A program made the position numbers and the translations under genes. This document shows positions 56,907-64,000 of a stretch of DNA of 64,000 nucleotides, one piece after another. A model generated the notes under the pieces. The model saw only the letters and a program-made list of their open reading frames with translations. It was not told where the DNA came from and searched no databases. The stretch's first letter is position 1. Every line of letters starts with the position of its first letter. The DNA is from Streptosporangium becharense (lineage in GTDB: Bacteria; Actinomycetota; Actinomycetes; Streptosporangiales; Streptosporangiaceae): assembly GCF_014204985.1 (NCBI RefSeq), contig NZ_JACHMP010000001.1, positions 3,782,001-3,846,000 of the forward strand, read 5' to 3'.

Positions 56907-57569
56907 ATGATTCTGGCGGTCATCATCGGTTGTGAGATCGGCTTCTGGATCCTGCTGGGGCTCGGGCTCGCCGTACGCTACCTGTGGGGCATGCGCCGGC
57001 TCAGCAGTGTCCTGCTCCTGGCGGTCCCGCTGCTCGACGTCATCCTGCTCGTCGCCTCGATCATCGACATGCGCGGTGGCGCGCAGGCCCACTGGCACCA
57101 CGGCCTGGCCGCCGCATACCTCGGCTACTCGATCATGTTCGGCCATCGGACGGTGAAATGGGCCGACGCCAGGTTCGCCCACCGTTTCGCCGGGGGCCCC
57201 GAACCCTGGCGTCCCCCGGCCGGCGGCATGGCCAGGGCCCGGTACGAGTGGGGCATCTGGCTCCGGATCGTCGTCGCGTACGGCATCACCTGTGCCCTGC
57301 TGTTCGGCCTGATCCACATGGTCGACGACCCCTCGCGGACGACGGCGCTCGTCGAGTTCATGAACGGCATGCTCAAGATCCCGATGATCGCGGTGCTCTG
57401 GCCGTTGAGCTACACCTTGTTCCCGAAGAAGGATCCCAATCAGGCGGAAGGCCCGTCTGCGGCGGAGGCCGGTTCGCCTCCGGCCGGAACCGGAACCGGT
57501 TCGTCACAGGGCGGTTCACCGGCAGGGACCGGTTCACCGGACGCGAGTTGGCGGGCGCCGGGCCGGTGA
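56907..57569 (+). CDS. Integral membrane protein
   Basis: The 220-residue protein has four to five membrane helices (3-25, 33-52, 67-85, 115-138, 150-170) and a Gly/Ser/Pro-rich cytoplasmic tail. 'AHWHHGLAAAYLGYSIMFGH' is a conserved-looking His-rich segment of actinomycete membrane proteins of unknown function. Confidence 0.75.
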   Translation: MILAVIIGCEIGFWILLGLGLAVRYLWGMRRLSSVLLLAVPLLDVILLVASIIDMRGGAQAHWHHGLAAAYLGYSIMFGHRTVKWADARFAHRFAGGPEPWRPPAGGMARARYEWGIWLRIVVAYGITCALLFGLIHMVDDPSRTTALVEFMNGMLKIPMIAVLWPLSYTLFPKKDPNQAEGPSAAEAGSPPAGTGTGSSQGGSPAGTGSPDASWRAPGR

Positions 57570-57828: not shown

Positions 57829-57901
57829 GCGGCCGTAGCTCAATGGATAGAGCATCTGACTACGGATCAGAAGGTTAGGGGTTCGAGTCCTCTCGGCCGC
57901 G
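57829..57901 (+). tRNA. tRNA-Arg(ACG)
   Basis: 73 bases with complete cloverleaf: acceptor GCGGCCG/CGGCCGC, D-arm AGCTCAATGGATAGAGC, anticodon stem-loop TCTGA-CTACGGA-TCAGA (ACG 57862-57864), T-arm with GGTTCGAGTCC, discriminator G. CCA is not encoded. Confidence 0.97.
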
Positions 57902-57908
57902 CAGATGT

Positions 57909-57951
57909 AAGAAGGCCCTTGAACAGGCGATACGCCGTTCAGGGCCTTCTT
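57909..57951 (+). terminator. tRNA-Arg / integrase terminator
   Basis: AAGAAGGCCCT(T)GAAC and GTTCAGGGCCTTCTT form a 15-bp stem with one bulge. It stops the tRNA, and on the other strand the integrase. Confidence 0.85.
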
Positions 57952-57962
57952 GCTTTTGGTAC

Positions 57963-59173
57963 TCAACCGGTCTCTTCCCCGCCTTTGGGAGCCATCCTGG
58001 GAGCCACGGGCTTCTGTCGTCCCAGCAGAGCTCCCGAGATCGCCGCCGTCGCGGCGCGCTTGTCGCCCTCCATCAGGTGCCCGTAGACGTCCTTGGTGAT
58101 CGAGATGCTCGCGTGCCCGAGGACGTCGGAGACCACGTGCAGCGGCGTGCCCTGGGCGAGCATGAGCGAGGCGCCGGAGTGGCGGAGCTCGTGCGGGTGC
58201 CAGTGGCCGAGGCCGGCCCTCTGCGCCAGCTTGGAGAACAGGTGCGAGAAGGTGTCGGGGTCGGACGGATTGCCGGAAGACGTGGGGAAGATCAGCCCGT
58301 GCTCGGCCCACTCCTGTCCGGCCTGGAGACGCTCGGCGTTGTGCAGGGCCCGGTGCCGCCGAAGCGCGTCGACCAGCTCGGACGTCAGGCACAGCGTCCG
58401 GCGTGACTTGCGGGTCTTCAGCTCGGAGATGACGAGCTTGGTCCTGCGGCCGGCGTCGACGTCGCGGTTCTTGACCCGCTTCACCGCATGCGTCACGCGC
58501 AGGGTGCGGGCGTCGGGATCGAAGGCGCTCCACATCAGCCCGAGCGCCTCACCGCGGCGAAGCCCGAAGACCAGGGAGAGCAGGACGAGCGCCCCCATCC
58601 GGTGCTCGGCGACCGCGTCGAGGAGCTGCCGGGACTGGTCGACGGTGAGCGTGCGGCCCTCGTCGGTGTTGATCCGGGGAGGCATCGACAGCGCCGCGAC
58701 GTTGCGCGCCACCAGGCCCTCACGCTCGGCCTGCCCCAGCGCCTTGCGGAGCACCGCCCGCATGATCCGGACGCTGTTGGGCTTGTACGTCGCCCGCTTG
58801 GCCTGCCAGAGCGCGTCGACGTGGGCCACGGTCAGCGCGGTGAGTTTGTGCCGCCCGAGCCCCGGCTTGAGGTGCAGCCGCACCGTGTCTTCGTAGTCGT
58901 CCAAGGTCGAGTCGGCGACGTGCCCGGGGAGCGTGGACAGCCACCGGTCGAGGAACGCCCCCACGGTGATCTTGTCGTCGGGGACCGGCAGCCTTTGGTG
59001 ATGCCCTCGCGGAGCTTCCGGATCTTCTCGACGACCTCGGCCCGCGTCTTGCCGGAGACCTTCTTGCGGACGCGTTCCCCGTTGGGCCCGTACCCGAGGG
59101 AGATGGCCCCGCGCCACCGGTCGCCGTCCTTGTAGATGGAGTCTTCGTTCTGGCCGCGCCTTTTCGTGCTCAT
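57963..59173 (-). pseudogene. Tyrosine integrase with a single-base frameshift
   Basis: From ATG 59173 the frame is a normal integrase N-terminus ('GERVRKKVSGKTRAEVVEKI') up to about residue 60 ('LREGITKG'), then it shifts; the rest continues in another frame ('LPVPDDKITVGAFLDRWLST') to 57963. One extra C near 58991-58995 would join them. The catalytic domain is intact: 'FGLRRGEALGL', 'HELRHSGASLML', 'LGHASISITKDVYGH'. It sits next to tRNA-Arg, its expected target. It may be a true mutation or an assembly error. Confidence 0.85.
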
Positions 59174-59364
59174 GCCGCGTTCTCCTCTTCCAAATGGGTG
59201 ACGAACTCGACGAGCGCGGTCCGGGGAATCCTGCGGAGACCACCGACGCGAACCGAACGGAGAGCACCCGACCTCATGAGCGCATAGACCTTTGTTCGGC
59301 CAATGCCGAGCAACTCGGCCGCCTTCTCGGGCCGGAGAAGCAAGGGATCGAGGTCACCGGTCAT
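59170..59364 (-). CDS. Excisionase-type HTH protein (left module)
   Basis: The 64-residue protein has 'LLRPEKAAELLGIGRTKVYA' and 'RVGGLRRIPRTALVEFV', the MerR/HTH_17 pattern of Xis. Its stop overlaps the integrase ATG (ATGA). A longer in-frame extension upstream is a shadow of the opposite integrase. Confidence 0.85.
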   Translation of the reverse strand: MTGDLDPLLLRPEKAAELLGIGRTKVYALMRSGALRSVRVGGLRRIPRTALVEFVTHLEEENAA

Positions 59365-59458
59365 GCGGCCGCCAACGCTGGCGAGCGACCCTCCTCGCCC
59401 TACAGGAGAAAGCGACCGGACGGGATCCTTCGGCGACTTCATCTCTGGGAGCGGCTGC

Positions 59459-59713
59459 ATGACCAAGATGACCGGGAAAGAACCCGCCCCGCTACTTCCT
59501 GAGATTGCCCGCGGTCGGCTGCTGACCGTCGAAGAAGTCGCGGAGCGGTTGAACACCACGACCCGTTTCCCCCGCCGCCTGATCGAGGAACGCCGGATCG
59601 CCTTCGTTCGCATCGGGCGCAACGTCCGCACCCCCGAAGCGGCACTTGAGGCGTTCATCGCAGCGGGACTCGTCGAACCGATCACCATCAACCGAGGTAG
59701 GAGGGCCGCGTGA
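59459..59713 (+). CDS. Excisionase-type HTH protein (right module)
   Basis: The 84-residue protein has 'LLTVEEVAERLNTTTRFPRR' and 'RIAFVRIGRNVRTPEAALEA', again Xis-like HTH_17. It diverges from the left module by a 94-base gap that must hold both promoters. The stop overlaps the integrase start. Confidence 0.83.
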   Translation: MTKMTGKEPAPLLPEIARGRLLTVEEVAERLNTTTRFPRRLIEERRIAFVRIGRNVRTPEAALEAFIAAGLVEPITINRGRRAA

Positions 59714-60921
59714 TGGCCGAGGCCGCCCTTGCCGCGTCCGAGGAAGGGCCTCGGCGCTCGCGTAAGAGGAAGCCTGCCAAGAGGCGCTTCGGTCGCGTTC
59801 GGCAACTGCCCTCCGGCCGGTGGCAGGCCCGGTACACCGGCCCGGACGGTGTGGACCGCCCGGCCCCGGAGACCTTCGCCACCAAGACGGACGCCGAGGT
59901 CTGGCTGACCAGGAAGGAGGCGGAGATCCTCGATGACGAGTGGATCGATCCGGACGCCGGGAAGATCACGCTTGGTGAGTACGGGCGGGCCTGGATCGAG
60001 GAACGGCCGAACCTCCGGCCCCGCACGGTCGAACTGTACGGCTACCTGCTCCGCGCTCACCTCGTCTCCACCTTCGGCGAGAAGGCGCTGAGCGAGATCA
60101 AGGATCCGCAGGTCCGGCGGTGGCGCAAGAAGCTTCTGGACGCGGGGGTCAGTGAGGTCACCGTGGCCAAGGCGTACCGGTTGTTGAAGGCGGTCCTGAC
60201 CACGGCCGTGGATGACCAGCTCATCAAGCGGAACCCGTGCCGGATCAAGGGTGCCGGTCAGGAGAGGTCGCCGGAACGGCCGGTGCTCACGGTCGCCGAG
60301 GTCTACCGGCTCGCCGACGCGATCGAGCCGCGCTACCGGGCGCTGGTGCTCCTGGCGACGTTCGGCGGTCTGCGCTGGGGTGAGCTGGCCGGCCTCCAGC
60401 GCCGGGACGTCGACCTGGGCGCCGGGACCGTGCGGGTGGAACGTCAGTTGATGCAGATCACCGGTCAGGGGCTTGTCTTCACCGAACCCAAGTCCGCGGC
60501 GGGCAAGCGGACGGTGGTGATCCCCGATCTGATCGTCGAAGATCTGCGGGCGCACGTGAAGGACTTCACCCAGGACGGGGACAAGGGGCTGATCTTCGCG
60601 GGACCGGATGACGGACCGCTGCGCAACACCAACTTCAACCGGCGCGTCTGGGCTCAGGCACTCAGGGACGCCGACCTCCCGAAGATCCACTTTCACGACC
60701 TGCGGCACACCGGGAACACCCTCGCCGCGAACGCCGGGGCGTCGATCCGGGAACTGATGGAGCGCATGGGCCACTCCAGTACGCGGGCGGCGATGATCTA
60801 TCAGCACTCCACCCACGAGCGGCAGCGGGAGGTGGCGAGGAAGCTCGACGGCCTCGCCCGTGGGGCACTCGGGAGGCGATCGGGCACGCAACGGGCACGG
60901 AAGCCGGACGAGGCCGAATAA
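59713..60921 (+). CDS. Tyrosine integrase (right module)
   Basis: The 402-residue recombinase has AP2-like N-terminus ('RQLPSGRWQARYTGPDG'), core-binding helices (80-175) and catalytic boxes 'FGGLRWGELAGL' (Arg), 'HDLRHTGNTLA' (His-Arg), 'MGHSSTRAAMIYQHS' (His and Tyr). ATG 59713 or GTG 59710 start. It ends 60 bases from the tRNA-Ala fragment, the usual int-att arrangement. Confidence 0.94.
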   Translation: MAEAALAASEEGPRRSRKRKPAKRRFGRVRQLPSGRWQARYTGPDGVDRPAPETFATKTDAEVWLTRKEAEILDDEWIDPDAGKITLGEYGRAWIEERPNLRPRTVELYGYLLRAHLVSTFGEKALSEIKDPQVRRWRKKLLDAGVSEVTVAKAYRLLKAVLTTAVDDQLIKRNPCRIKGAGQERSPERPVLTVAEVYRLADAIEPRYRALVLLATFGGLRWGELAGLQRRDVDLGAGTVRVERQLMQITGQGLVFTEPKSAAGKRTVVIPDLIVEDLRAHVKDFTQDGDKGLIFAGPDDGPLRNTNFNRRVWAQALRDADLPKIHFHDLRHTGNTLAANAGASIRELMERMGHSSTRAAMIYQHSTHERQREVARKLDGLARGALGRRSGTQRARKPDEAE

Positions 60922-60927
60922 AGATCG

Positions 60928-60967
60928 AAGCCCAGGTGAGGCGACCATGCCTGACCTGGGCTTTTCT
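60928..60967 (+). terminator. Integrase terminator
   Basis: AAGCCCAGGT and ACCTGGGCTT form a 10-bp stem (extended inside by AGGC/GCCT) followed by TTTT. Confidence 0.85.
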
Positions 60968-60980
60968 ATGTCGTGAGGGC

Positions 60981-61024
60981 GGTGGAGCCTAGGAGATTCG
61001 AACTCCTGACATCCTGCTTGCAAA
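60981..61024 (-). other. Detached 3' part of tRNA-Ala(TGC): attachment site
   Basis: On the minus strand TTTGCAAGCAGG, T-arm AGGAGTTCGAATCTCCT and acceptor end AGGCTCCACC match the 3' half of tRNA-Ala(TGC). The 5' half is not to the right. By the same reasoning as at 49,941, element-type DNA should lie to the right of it, although the nearest integrase is on the left. Confidence 0.8.
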
Positions 61025-61182
61025 TCGGTCTGATCTTGGGCTGTACGGGGCCTGAGCTGGGCAGCGGGCTCCCCGCGAGGGACCGTGACTGACCCCTGTT
61101 GACCGCCCTTAATGGCCCGCTAATGGCCCGACGATCAGCCCCATGACCTGGTCTTCCCCACGCGGCGCGCACACCCCGCCCG

Positions 61183-61335
61183 CCTGATCATCCCGTCTGC
61201 CGTCGACCCGCCCGAAGGGGAAGCGGGCCGGGGTCGCGGGGCCAAGGTGGAGCGCCCCACCGGACGAACGACCTTGGCCCCGCGACCCCGGTCTGCTCGG
61301 CTTGTCCCGGGTCGATGGCAGACGGGATGATCAGG
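61183..61335. repeat. 153-bp near-palindromic element
   Basis: Outer arms of 28 bases (61183-61210, 61308-61335; one mismatch) and inner arms of 21 bases (61228-61248, 61271-61291; perfect) surround a 22-base loop. It codes for nothing evident. It could be a MITE-like element, a fossil of IS ends, or a very strong hairpin of regulatory use. Confidence 0.85.
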
Positions 61336-61434
61336 CCCCTACCTCAGCCACCTACGGACCGCGCGAAGAAGCCCGCGATCATCCCGGAGCCGGAGCGCCC
61401 CCGCCGGAGGCATTCCCTGTGAACCTGATCTACG

Positions 61435-61440
61435 GATACT
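61435..61440 (+). promoter_or_regulatory. GATACT -10 box, leaderless geometry
   Basis: GATACT is followed by 6 bases and ATG 61447; no ribosome site. Confidence 0.5.
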
Positions 61441-61446
61441 TGTGGC

Positions 61447-61833
61447 ATGGCATCCTCGGAGATTCCGCGCACCGTCAAGGCCGTCAGTACGGCCCAGCTC
61501 ATTTACCTCGATGAGGAGGCGAGGGCGTGCGAGCTCAATCGTCAGCATGGAGCCGGGTGGCTGGCCGAGCATGCCGATCCAGAGGCGACTCACTACTTGT
61601 GGCCGGCGTTGGTTCATCGCCTGAACCATCGGCCGGAGCACTCGCCGCATTGGCGCTGCATGCTGCTGCTGACTCTGCGGGACGGTCAGGAAGTTTTCTC
61701 GATGCTGGATGTCCTGCCGGCCGCTTTTGATCGGCTGGCTGAGAGCCTGGACCGCGAGACGAAGACACGGATCGCTCGAAGGCTGCTGGGGTCGATGCAG
61801 ACCGTGGCCGAGTGGTCCGAGCGTAACGCCTGA
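61447..61833 (+). CDS. Hypothetical protein
   Basis: The 128-residue protein is helical, with 'LIYLDEEARACELNRQHGAG' early and 'LNHRPEHSPHWRCMLLLTLR' in the middle. I do not recognise the family. It lies between the palindrome and SLATT gene, so may be accessory. Confidence 0.6.
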   Translation: MASSEIPRTVKAVSTAQLIYLDEEARACELNRQHGAGWLAEHADPEATHYLWPALVHRLNHRPEHSPHWRCMLLLTLRDGQEVFSMLDVLPAAFDRLAESLDRETKTRIARRLLGSMQTVAEWSERNA

Positions 61834-62292
61834 GGCGTTGTCTGATGGTCTGTGCATGAACTGGGTGCTCTACGCGCTCTGCGGCCCGTGCGCGTCGCGC
61901 GCGAGAACGGCCCCCAGGCCGCACGCGCAGCGTGCAGGCGTGCGCGGGCCGCAGAGCGGCGCGCAGCGCCGCCCTTGATACCCATGAGATTAATTCGGCA
62001 ACTGCTTGGCAACATGACAAGCCGACTATCCCCTTTTCAGGCGGAGCAATCATCCTGTTCGGCTGATCGATGCCTTGGTCAAGCGTGTGCCGCCAGTGGC
62101 ATGGAGGCGTCGGCGTGTAGGGACATTGTTGTCACCCCAGTTATAGTCACCCAGTGCTGGGGCCCGAAGGAGTCCTCAACGTCGATCGCCCCAGCTAGAG
62201 ACGGCAAGCACCAAAGTGAGCGATCGTCATCCTGGACCGAGCGGTCATCTCCTCGTCAGACAGGCGTCGTTTGGAGCACCCTCATACAGGAG
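61834..62292. other. Gap without supported gene
   Basis: GC-rich first part (61860-61980) with many CGCG tracts and then lower-GC DNA. No gene is recognised. Confidence 0.4.
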
Positions 62293-63120
62293 TTACACGG
62301 TCCCTTCTTTACCTTCGTGAGGCTGGTCGAGCTGTTGCTGACGCTTGCGTTGCTCGACCCGCAATAGCTCAATTTCCTTAGAAAGCTTGTAAAGATTTTT
62401 GCTTTCATTGGGATCCTCATAGGGAGGAATCCCCAACTCAAATGCAGCCATATTTTGTTCGATGGCGTCCGCCGTCTGCTGCAGATAGAAGCTGCGTTCT
62501 CGATATTTGAAATATCCCGTAAACCCGGCCGAGACTCCCACTGCAAAGCTGAGTGCGACCGTTATCCACTTATAGGGAGCGGGAGTGTCGGCAAGGCTTG
62601 CAGCCGTTGTGGTTCCTAGCGAACCAACTATGATAATCGCCTGAAAGATGTTATGAATGCGACGATAATACTTTGCCTCATCGCGCAGTTGCGTCAACTC
62701 GCGCGGTATATCTTCCTTATACGCGTACTGTCGTTGATAAACAGGCAATCCAAGGTGCGACGCCGAGAGCCGGCGCGCCTCTTCGGCTAACTCAAGGTCG
62801 AGCTGAAGTCTGCGTACCGTTTTACTCTCGTTTCCGGTTCTCTCTGACTCCAGGTAAGCGAGCCTCAGAAATAGAGCGCCAGATAAAACGGTTAAGGGGA
62901 TTGCTACGCGATTGATTGGACCCATATCGAAAATGTCCCAGGTTGATACTGTGGCAATAAAGATAGCCACACTTCCAACCGACACTATTGCAGCCGAAAA
63001 GAAAAGGGATCTTTTCTGGATTTTTCGAACCCGTATTGCCTCTTGCAGGGCGAGAATTTTCGCGTTGTGGGCCAATAGCTGAGCTTGTGGACCTGCTCCG
63101 ATGTTCGCAATCTCGGACAA
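62293..63120 (-). CDS. SLATT-type (DUF4231-like) membrane protein, low GC
   Basis: The 275-residue protein has two pairs of membrane helices (40-60, 68-88; 160-180, 188-208) and after each helical segments. The C-terminal 'FKYRERSFYLQQTADAIEQN' is close to the SLATT family pattern of 2TM effectors tied to nucleotide-signalling defence systems. The start is TTG 63120, just after an in-frame stop, with AAGGCGG upstream. GC is well below neighbours, so it is probably recently acquired. No cyclase or SMODS gene is beside it. Confidence 0.7.
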   Translation of the reverse strand: MSEIANIGAGPQAQLLAHNAKILALQEAIRVRKIQKRSLFFSAAIVSVGSVAIFIATVSTWDIFDMGPINRVAIPLTVLSGALFLRLAYLESERTGNESKTVRRLQLDLELAEEARRLSASHLGLPVYQRQYAYKEDIPRELTQLRDEAKYYRRIHNIFQAIIIVGSLGTTTAASLADTPAPYKWITVALSFAVGVSAGFTGYFKYRERSFYLQQTADAIEQNMAAFELGIPPYEDPNESKNLYKLSKEIELLRVEQRKRQQQLDQPHEGKEGTV

Positions 63121-63444
63121 GTTTCACCGCCTTCAACCTATTTAGCATTATCGCGCACCTTCTCCCAAGATCTGATCATACACAGAACTTTATTCGTTTC
63201 CAGCAGTTTGTTCTGACCGAAAATGGCCAACCTAACCTCACAGGAGCCATCTTCATTTCACGGCGCCATGCCTTATGGCCAGGTGAAACCCGTACACCGA
63301 ATCTCTGGGAGCAGCCGTTGTTAAGCCTTCAGCCCTGCTCATACATGCGGTGAGGGTCGGCGCGTACGCAACCGACGTGGATCGCTTACGCCTGGGCCGC
63401 GATAGTTCTACTGGATGCCCGTGTACGTCGGGGATGTTGGCCTG
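63121..63444. other. Gap before the Nudix gene
   Basis: No gene supported. The left part shares the low GC of the SLATT gene; the boundary to host-like GC is around 63350. Confidence 0.4.
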
Positions 63445-63450
63445 TAACTT
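63445..63450 (+). promoter_or_regulatory. TAACTT -10 box, leaderless geometry
   Basis: TAACTT is followed by 6 bases and GTG 63457; no ribosome site. Confidence 0.5.
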
Positions 63451-63456
63451 CGCTGT

Positions 63457-64000
63457 GTGGCTACCAATGAGGAGCAGACGCGTTGGATCGTGCACGGTGA
63501 GCGGCTGATCTACGACAACGAGTGGATCCGGCTCGGGCTCGTGGACGTGGAGATCCCGGACGGGGAGCGGTTCGAGCACCACGCGGTTCATCTGGGGCGG
63601 GCGGCCATGACGGTGCTGGTCGATGATGAGAACCGGGTGCTGATGATGTGGCGGCACCGGTTCCTGTTCGACCGGTGGGGCTGGGAGTTGCCCGGTGGGC
63701 TGGTCGAGGTGGGTGAGGATCCGAAGGACACCGCCGCTCGTGAGGTGGAGGAGGAGACCGGGTACCGCCCCAGGGAGATGGAGCACCTGATCACCTTCCA
63801 GCCGATGGTGGGCATGGTTGACTCCGAGCACCTCGTGTTTCTCGGCAGAGGGGCCGAACTGGTGGGGGAACCGGTCGGGGAGGTTGAGGCCGATCGGCTG
63901 GAGTGGATCCCGATGGCCGAGATTCCCGACATGATCGCCCGCGGGGATGTGTGGAACTCCGGGGTGCTGGTCGGGTTGCTGTACGCGCGAGAGCGGCTCA
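63457..64000 (+). CDS. Nudix hydrolase, 3' end cut by window
   Basis: From GTG 63457 the frame stays open to the right edge (181 codons). The Nudix box 'GGLVEVGEDPKDTAAREVEE' then E-T-G is complete, with 'WGWELPGG' before it. ADP-ribose pyrophosphatase-like layout ('YDNEWIRLGLVDVEIPDG', 'FEHHAVHL'). The gene continues outside the window. Confidence 0.92.
   Translation, partial: MATNEEQTRWIVHGERLIYDNEWIRLGLVDVEIPDGERFEHHAVHLGRAAMTVLVDDENRVLMMWRHRFLFDRWGWELPGGLVEVGEDPKDTAAREVEEETGYRPREMEHLITFQPMVGMVDSEHLVFLGRGAELVGEPVGEVEADRLEWIPMAEIPDMIARGDVWNSGVLVGLLYARERL

What the first reader, a model, noticed from the sequence alone, without database searches (positions are those of the whole stretch)
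57829..61024. Head-to-head pair of excisionase-integrase modules
int-xis (minus) and xis-int (plus) diverge from a 94-base gap, flanked by intact tRNA-Arg on the left and a tRNA-Ala 3' piece on the right. Each integrase abuts a different tRNA. This looks like two elements fused with all else deleted, or a compact mobile unit with two targets.
Basis: partly seen in the sequence, partly recalled or inferred. Interest (0 to 1): 0.75.

Follow-up and report, generated by a model that had tools for sequence, protein, structure and literature searches.

The report
Two integrated elements joined by inversion
The back-to-back pair of integrase genes is the scar of a roughly 170-kilobase chromosome inversion in a soil actinobacterium that joined the ends of two known-type mobile elements; it is a fossil of ordinary elements, not a new mobile unit.

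Summary
In detail: int1-xis1 (minus) and xis2-int2 (plus) diverge from a 94-base gap between an intact tRNA-Arg and a tRNA-Ala 3' core. Both are the integrase ends of RepSA/pSAM2-type AICEs: a repSA stub lies upstream of xis2, and relatives carry each module alone in a complete AICE. In the genus the two tRNA sites' flank genes normally lie 134-220 kb apart on one strand (7 of 8 other genomes with both on one contig). Here they are 15 kb apart on opposite strands, and the segment between the sites is inverted. The other end lies about 180 kb left: a second tRNA-Arg core with the native tRNA-Arg flank, inverted, then tRNA-Ala-site sequence, inverted. The junction (59369-59373, about 5 bases of microhomology) was found in no other of 341 family genomes. 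int1 carries a one-base frameshift and both rep bodies are gone. So this is an inversion scar. Its layout is topologically that of an integrated bipartite ICE, so a decayed bipartite AICE is not excluded (about 0.12); missing rep/tra, a missing tRNA-Ala core and uniqueness count against it.

The parts
56907..57569 (+). chromosomal flank gene ('Lflank220') upstream of tRNA-Arg
   Evidence: found in 15 of 16 genus genomes; used for synteny
57829..57902 (+). intact tRNA-Arg(ACG), attL of element 1
   Evidence: its 3' core recurs inverted at genome 3659589-3659631
57963..59173 (-). int1, tyrosine integrase with a one-base deletion (frameshift) near 58992-58994
   Evidence: homologues open through in L082, L083, L084, L085, L087
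59170..59364 (-). xis1, excisionase
   Evidence: TIGR01764 E 1.2e-13
59369..59373 (.). junction, CCGCC microhomology (read from stand-in sequences); homology to tRNA-Arg/Thr-type AICEs ends here on the left, homology to tRNA-Ala-type AICEs begins here on the right
59370..59438 (+). 3' stub of repSA (last ~23 codons)
   Evidence: 91% to RepSA residues 532-554 of AICE A;
59459..59713 (+). xis2, excisionase
   Evidence: TIGR01764 E 1.1e-14
59710..60921 (+). int2, tyrosine integrase (GTG 59710 or ATG 59713)
   Evidence: PF00589 E 3.1e-21; 91% relative in a complete AICE at tRNA-Ala (L090)
60981..61024 (-). tRNA-Ala 3' core: attR of AICE A, and att side of int2's element
60981..64000 (.). left part of the complete AICE A (runs on to intact tRNA-Ala at genome 3854610-3854685; int, xis, RepSA, FtsK-like Tra, GntR regulator)

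Best explanation
The head-to-head pair is one breakpoint of a chromosomal inversion of about 170-180 kb. Two AICEs (RepSA/pSAM2 type) sat in the 3' ends of tRNA-Ala and tRNA-Arg, whose flank genes in the genus lie 134-220 kb apart on one strand. An inversion with one break just upstream of xis1 in the tRNA-Arg element and the other in the last ~70 bases of repSA in the tRNA-Ala element joined the two int-xis ends head to head and flipped the segment between (shown by synteny). The reciprocal end was eroded: both rep bodies and the tra genes are gone (shown as absent; that they were lost after the inversion is inferred). A further complete AICE sits between int2's end and the intact tRNA-Ala (shown). 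The inversion was probably joined by microhomology or end joining, because the elements were in direct orientation and homologous recombination would have given a deletion (inferred). The pair is a dead remnant: int1 is frameshifted, and neither module has a rep, a tra or a properly placed second att site (mobility itself was not tested).
For: Synteny against genus mate G158: the segment 3568859-3702327 is collinear with own 3667350-3839432, apart from local rearrangements and insertions, while the tRNA-Ala/HAD side (3515001-3556426) maps inverted to own 3854909-3946194. HAD and Lflank220 are on the same strand, 134-220 kb apart, in 7 of 8 other genus genomes with both on one contig; here opposite and 15.3 kb apart. 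The reciprocal end has a tRNA-Arg core plus the native tRNA-Arg downstream flank at own 3659565-3659631, inverted, matching L083, L144, L146, L147. It is followed by tRNA-Ala-site sequence 3662320-3664322, inverted: a ClpP pair that in 6 genomes lies 3.7-17.8 kb from the HAD gene on the same strand, against 190.6 kb and opposite here, and an int 3' end that sits beside tRNA-Ala in G150. Own 3654355-3655340 maps inverted to G152 and G156, about 30 and 24 kb past their tRNA-Arg. Each module lies alone in complete AICEs in relatives: 4 of 8 int1 loci and 6 of 14 int2 loci fetched. The junction is spanned only in the own genome, 1 of 341. RepSA occurs in full at only four places in the genome, none being the body of element 1 or B at the reciprocal site.
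Against: The reciprocal junction is not clean: between attR1 and the tRNA-Ala-site sequence lie an integrase remnant with a tRNA-Thr-like core and a 209-aa gene, and no tRNA-Ala core was found within 8 mismatches. The tRNA-Ala-site homology there starts about 20 bases from where a core should end, which a random deletion does not predict. G157 also has the two flank genes on opposite strands, 427 kb apart, so the region may rearrange repeatedly. The ClpP pair lies elsewhere in several genus genomes. The piece left of attR1 lies far from tRNA-Arg in G154, G158 and G123. The microhomology is read from stand-in elements, not from the true parents.
Confidence: 0.8

Rival explanations
1. A decayed bipartite AICE: a circle with two integrase-excisionase pairs and two att sites integrated at tRNA-Arg and then recombined with tRNA-Ala, inverting the chromosome between, as bipartite symbiosis ICEs of Bradyrhizobium do. 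The window holds its small arm.
For: The layout is topologically identical: int1 arm from tRNA-Arg to a tRNA-Ala core, second tRNA-Arg core inverted 180 kb away, inverted segment between. The tRNA-Ala-side homology at the far end starts close to a core position. Precedent: PMC9174649 passages, PMC5882170 passages.
Against: No rep or tra in the far arm, no tRNA-Ala core there, int1 frameshifted, junction in no other of 341 family genomes, each module found in ordinary single AICEs, repSA stub cut mid-gene.
Confidence: 0.12
2. Plain deletion: two convergent elements lost everything between their integrase ends, without inversion.
For: rep and tra of both elements are missing.
Against: The sites are in direct orientation and their flank genes 134-220 kb apart in relatives, and the segment between them is still present here, inverted relative to both flanks.
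Confidence: 0.03
3. Assembly artefact: a false join between repeated AICE copies.
For: Several AICEs with similar repSA ends occur in the genome.
Against: The join is not at a shared repeat longer than about 5 bases; the far end is eroded rather than a clean reciprocal.
Confidence: 0.04

Closest known systems
AICEs of the pSAM2 / RepSA type (Actinobacteria; PMC3218068, passages read)
   Same: tyrosine integrase and Xis in the order rep-xis-int, sites in tRNA 3' ends, RepSA, FtsK-like Tra; tandem accretion in one tRNA is known (PMC3218068, PMC9513070 passages)
   Different: the pair here has no rep or tra, opposite-facing modules from two elements, and att pairs that are not direct repeats around it
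Bipartite/tripartite symbiosis ICEs of Bradyrhizobium and Mesorhizobium (PMC9174649, PMC5882170, passages read)
   Same: several integrase-RDF pairs, att sites in inverted order far apart, chromosome inverted between; their origin by inversions between single ICEs has been proposed (PMC5882170)
   Different: no conjugation or replication genes in either arm, second tRNA-Ala core not found, int1 broken, seen in one genome only
Frankia AICE Fcci3390 with two int genes (PMC3218068 passages)
   Same: two different integrase genes in one element
   Different: that element was seen to excise and has one cognate RDF only; its two int genes are not head-to-head int-xis modules of two elements

Membership tests
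AICE (RepSA type), applied to the head-to-head pair | tyrosine integrase with Xis | tested here: met
   int1 with a one-base frameshift
AICE (RepSA type), applied to the head-to-head pair | replication initiator RepSA | tested here: not met
   only a ~23-codon 3' stub
AICE (RepSA type), applied to the head-to-head pair | FtsK-like Tra | tested here: not met
   in own 3540001-3896000 the only Tra matches belong to AICE C (3730286-3731694) and AICE A (3849839-3851248)
AICE (RepSA type), applied to the head-to-head pair | att direct repeats at both ends | tested here: not met
   the two tRNA-Arg cores are inverted and 180 kb apart; the only tRNA-Ala cores bound AICE A
AICE (RepSA type), applied to neighbouring AICE A | att direct repeats, int, xis, RepSA, FtsK-like Tra | tested here: met
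bipartite ICE | two integrase-RDF pairs with different tRNA sites | tested here: met
   one integrase frameshifted
bipartite ICE | both att pairs present as separated hybrid sites | tested here: not met
   tRNA-Arg pair found, second tRNA-Ala core not found within 8 mismatches in own 3655000-3668000
bipartite ICE | conjugation genes in one of the arms | tested here: not met
bipartite ICE | stepwise excision into one circle | not testable with these tools
   needs PCR or reads

The most novel reading that the evidence does not exclude
The remains of a bipartite AICE, an actinobacterial counterpart of the polypartite symbiosis ICEs: one arm (attL-Arg, int1, xis1, xis2, int2, tRNA-Ala core) in the window and the other, decayed, about 180 kb away; or a snapshot of the inversion between two single elements that has been proposed as the first step to such elements.
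Probability: 0.12. Interest if true: 0.6.

Novelty: new member of a known kind. Interest (0 to 1): 0.3.

Why it matters
It shows two tRNA-lodged AICEs lying at the breakpoints of a chromosomal inversion, which is the kind of event proposed for the birth of multipartite ICEs (PMC5882170). If the minority reading were true it would extend multipartite ICEs to actinobacteria with their different, FtsK-like transfer system. As it stands it is a fossil, useful mainly as a worked case of how head-to-head integrase pairs can arise without a new kind of element.

Tried and rejected
Tried: a core search for a tRNA-Ala remnant at the reciprocal end (none within 8 mismatches of a 26-base core in own 3655000-3668000; no shared 12-mer with the tRNA in 3659500-3667400). 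Own-genome search with the tRNA-Arg downstream region of G150 found only weak, scattered hits; that region seems variable. AICE C at tRNA-Ser (genome 3726.5-3735 kb) was first taken as the missing half of element 1 or B and rejected, because it has its own integrase and tRNA. The RepSA at 5864762 has its own Tra about 0.4 kb upstream and was not taken as the missing half. No structure prediction was run: the families are plain from sequence. Considered and rejected: plain deletion, functional two-target unit.

Literature: searches; no paper in the rows listed there is presented, by title or abstract, as describing an inversion between two AICEs or a bipartite AICE. 'Bipartite' in PMC8190616 refers to networks.

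Full report
What is there. tRNA-Arg(ACG) lies at 57829-57902; int1 (57963-59173, -) and xis1 (59170-59364, -) read towards it; xis2 (59459-59713, +) and int2 (59710-60921, +) read away to a 44-base tRNA-Ala 3' core at 60981-61024. Pfam and NCBIfam give tyrosine integrases and excisionases. The gap between the xis genes is 94 bases. int1 lacks one base near 58992-58994 compared with L082, L083, L084 and L087, and its homologues in those four and in L085 read through; it was searched in two frames, not mended.

Both modules come from AICEs. The 94-base gap holds the last ~23 codons of a repSA gene, 91% identical to RepSA of a neighbouring element. That neighbour, AICE A, is complete: intact tRNA-Ala(UGC) at genome 3854610-3854685, int, xis, RepSA (PF20199 E 6e-105), FtsK-like Tra, GntR regulator, and attR at window 60981-61024. 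So the tRNA-Ala 'piece' is the attR of AICE A, and int2 belongs to a second element behind it, as in tandem accretion. Tandem accretion of AICEs is known (PMC3218068, PMC9513070, passages).

Relatives. int1 was sought in 150 family genomes and int2 in 150. I fetched 8 int1 loci and 14 int2 loci. int1 homologues lie alone in int-xis-RepSA-Tra-regulator AICEs in 4 of 8 (L082, L083, L084, L087) at tRNA-Arg or tRNA-Thr; the other four are partial, cut by a contig end, or remnants. int2 homologues lie alone in such AICEs in 6 of 14 (L090, L091, L092 at tRNA-Ala beside the same HAD-family gene as here; L094, L101, L102 at tRNA-Gly); the other eight are remnants or partial. A 521-base probe over the junction was searched in 341 family genomes: 135 had a match, but only the own genome matched across; the other listed rows stop by about probe position 205 or start at about 187 or later, i.e. 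at window 59366-59384 (weaker rows were not listed).

Synteny shows an inversion. All 16 genus genomes held carry the HAD gene that here lies beside tRNA-Ala, and 15 of 16 carry Lflank220, which here lies beside tRNA-Arg. Besides the own genome, 8 have both on one contig: 7 on the same strand, 134-220 kb apart; G157 on opposite strands, 427 kb apart. In the own genome they are on opposite strands, 15.3 kb apart. Against G158, the segment between the two tRNAs is collinear with own 3667350-3839432 (with local rearrangements and insertions), while the HAD side maps inverted to own 3854909-3946194. In G150, G123, G152, G156 and G158, where I read the flanks, the two tRNAs are on the same strand.

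The reciprocal end. About 180 kb left of tRNA-Arg, own 3659589-3659631 is a second tRNA-Arg 3' core (3 mismatches in 26) on the minus strand, followed by the sequence that follows tRNA-Arg or its attR in L083, L144, L146 and L147. Farther left, 3654355-3655340 maps inverted to G152 and G156 about 30 and 24 kb past their tRNA-Arg; in G154, G158 and G123 the same piece lies much farther away. To the right, 3662320-3664322 is tRNA-Ala-site sequence, inverted: an integrase 3' end that adjoins tRNA-Ala in G150, and a ClpP pair. The ClpP pair lies 3.7-17.8 kb from the HAD gene, same strand, in 6 genomes (G154, G071, G101, G015, G129, G044); in several other genus genomes it lies elsewhere. Between the two sides are an integrase remnant with a tRNA-Thr-like core (3660786-3661437) and a 209-aa gene with only distant (about 25%) relatives, some downstream of tRNA-Arg in G150, G119 and G152. 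RepSA in full occurs at four genome places, none being the body of either broken element at this end.

Mechanism. Reading the ancestral order as HAD-tRNA-Ala-element B-[segment]-Lflank220-tRNA-Arg-element 1, one inversion with breaks at the xis/rep boundary of both elements gives exactly the present order. With AICE A and L084 as stand-ins for the parents, the two sides share about 5 bases (GGCGG/CCGCC) at 59369-59373. The elements were in direct orientation, in which homologous recombination deletes rather than inverts; so I infer end joining at microhomology. Why both breaks fall at the rep/xis boundary is unexplained.

The bipartite reading. The resulting layout is the one described for integrated bipartite symbiosis ICEs, which invert the chromosome as they integrate (PMC9174649 passages), and inversions between single ICEs are the proposed origin of tripartite ICEs (PMC5882170 passages). 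So a decayed bipartite AICE cannot be excluded by layout. Against it: no rep or tra in the far arm, no second tRNA-Ala core, broken int1, a junction seen in one genome only, and both modules at home in ordinary AICEs. One point for it: the tRNA-Ala-side homology at the far end begins about 20 bases from where a core would end.

Source. The genus is inferred to be Streptosporangium: genome G005, labelled same genus, has a contig of the same length (75190) as NZ_BMQJ01000028.1 of S. pseudovulgare.

Verdict. A real and correctly described feature, explained by an inversion between two known-type elements plus decay; modest interest.

Noticed in passing
window 60981-64000 and on to genome 3854685: A complete RepSA-type AICE (AICE A, about 11.7 kb) between int2 and the intact tRNA-Ala.
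   Followed up: partly
window 61161-61411: Nested inverted repeats (arms 61182-61210/61308-61336, 97%, and 61222-61257/61262-61297, 83%) just inside AICE A's attR; the stretch matches 95% in L090, and parts of it 84% in L095 and 82% in L157, so it is conserved among AICEs; perhaps a replication or transfer origin.
   Followed up: no
genome 3660786-3661437 (L115 786-1437): Integrase remnant followed by a tRNA-Thr-like core, with no tRNA-Thr gene there; 91% over 90 bases to the int/tRNA-Thr end of L084.
   Followed up: partly
genome 3726493-3735156 (L118): Another AICE at tRNA-Ser(UGA) with its own integrase; its Tra matches in two overlapping frames, suggesting a frameshift.
   Followed up: partly
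L210, L211 (G157 contig C4): G157 also has the tRNA-Ala and tRNA-Arg flank genes on opposite strands, 427 kb apart: possibly a separate rearrangement of the same region.
   Followed up: partly
L115 2960-4212 (genome 3662960-3664212): A pair of ClpP-like genes, about 85-95% identical in DNA across many genera of the family and found at varying sites, sometimes near tRNA-Ala: perhaps cargo of elements.
   Followed up: partly
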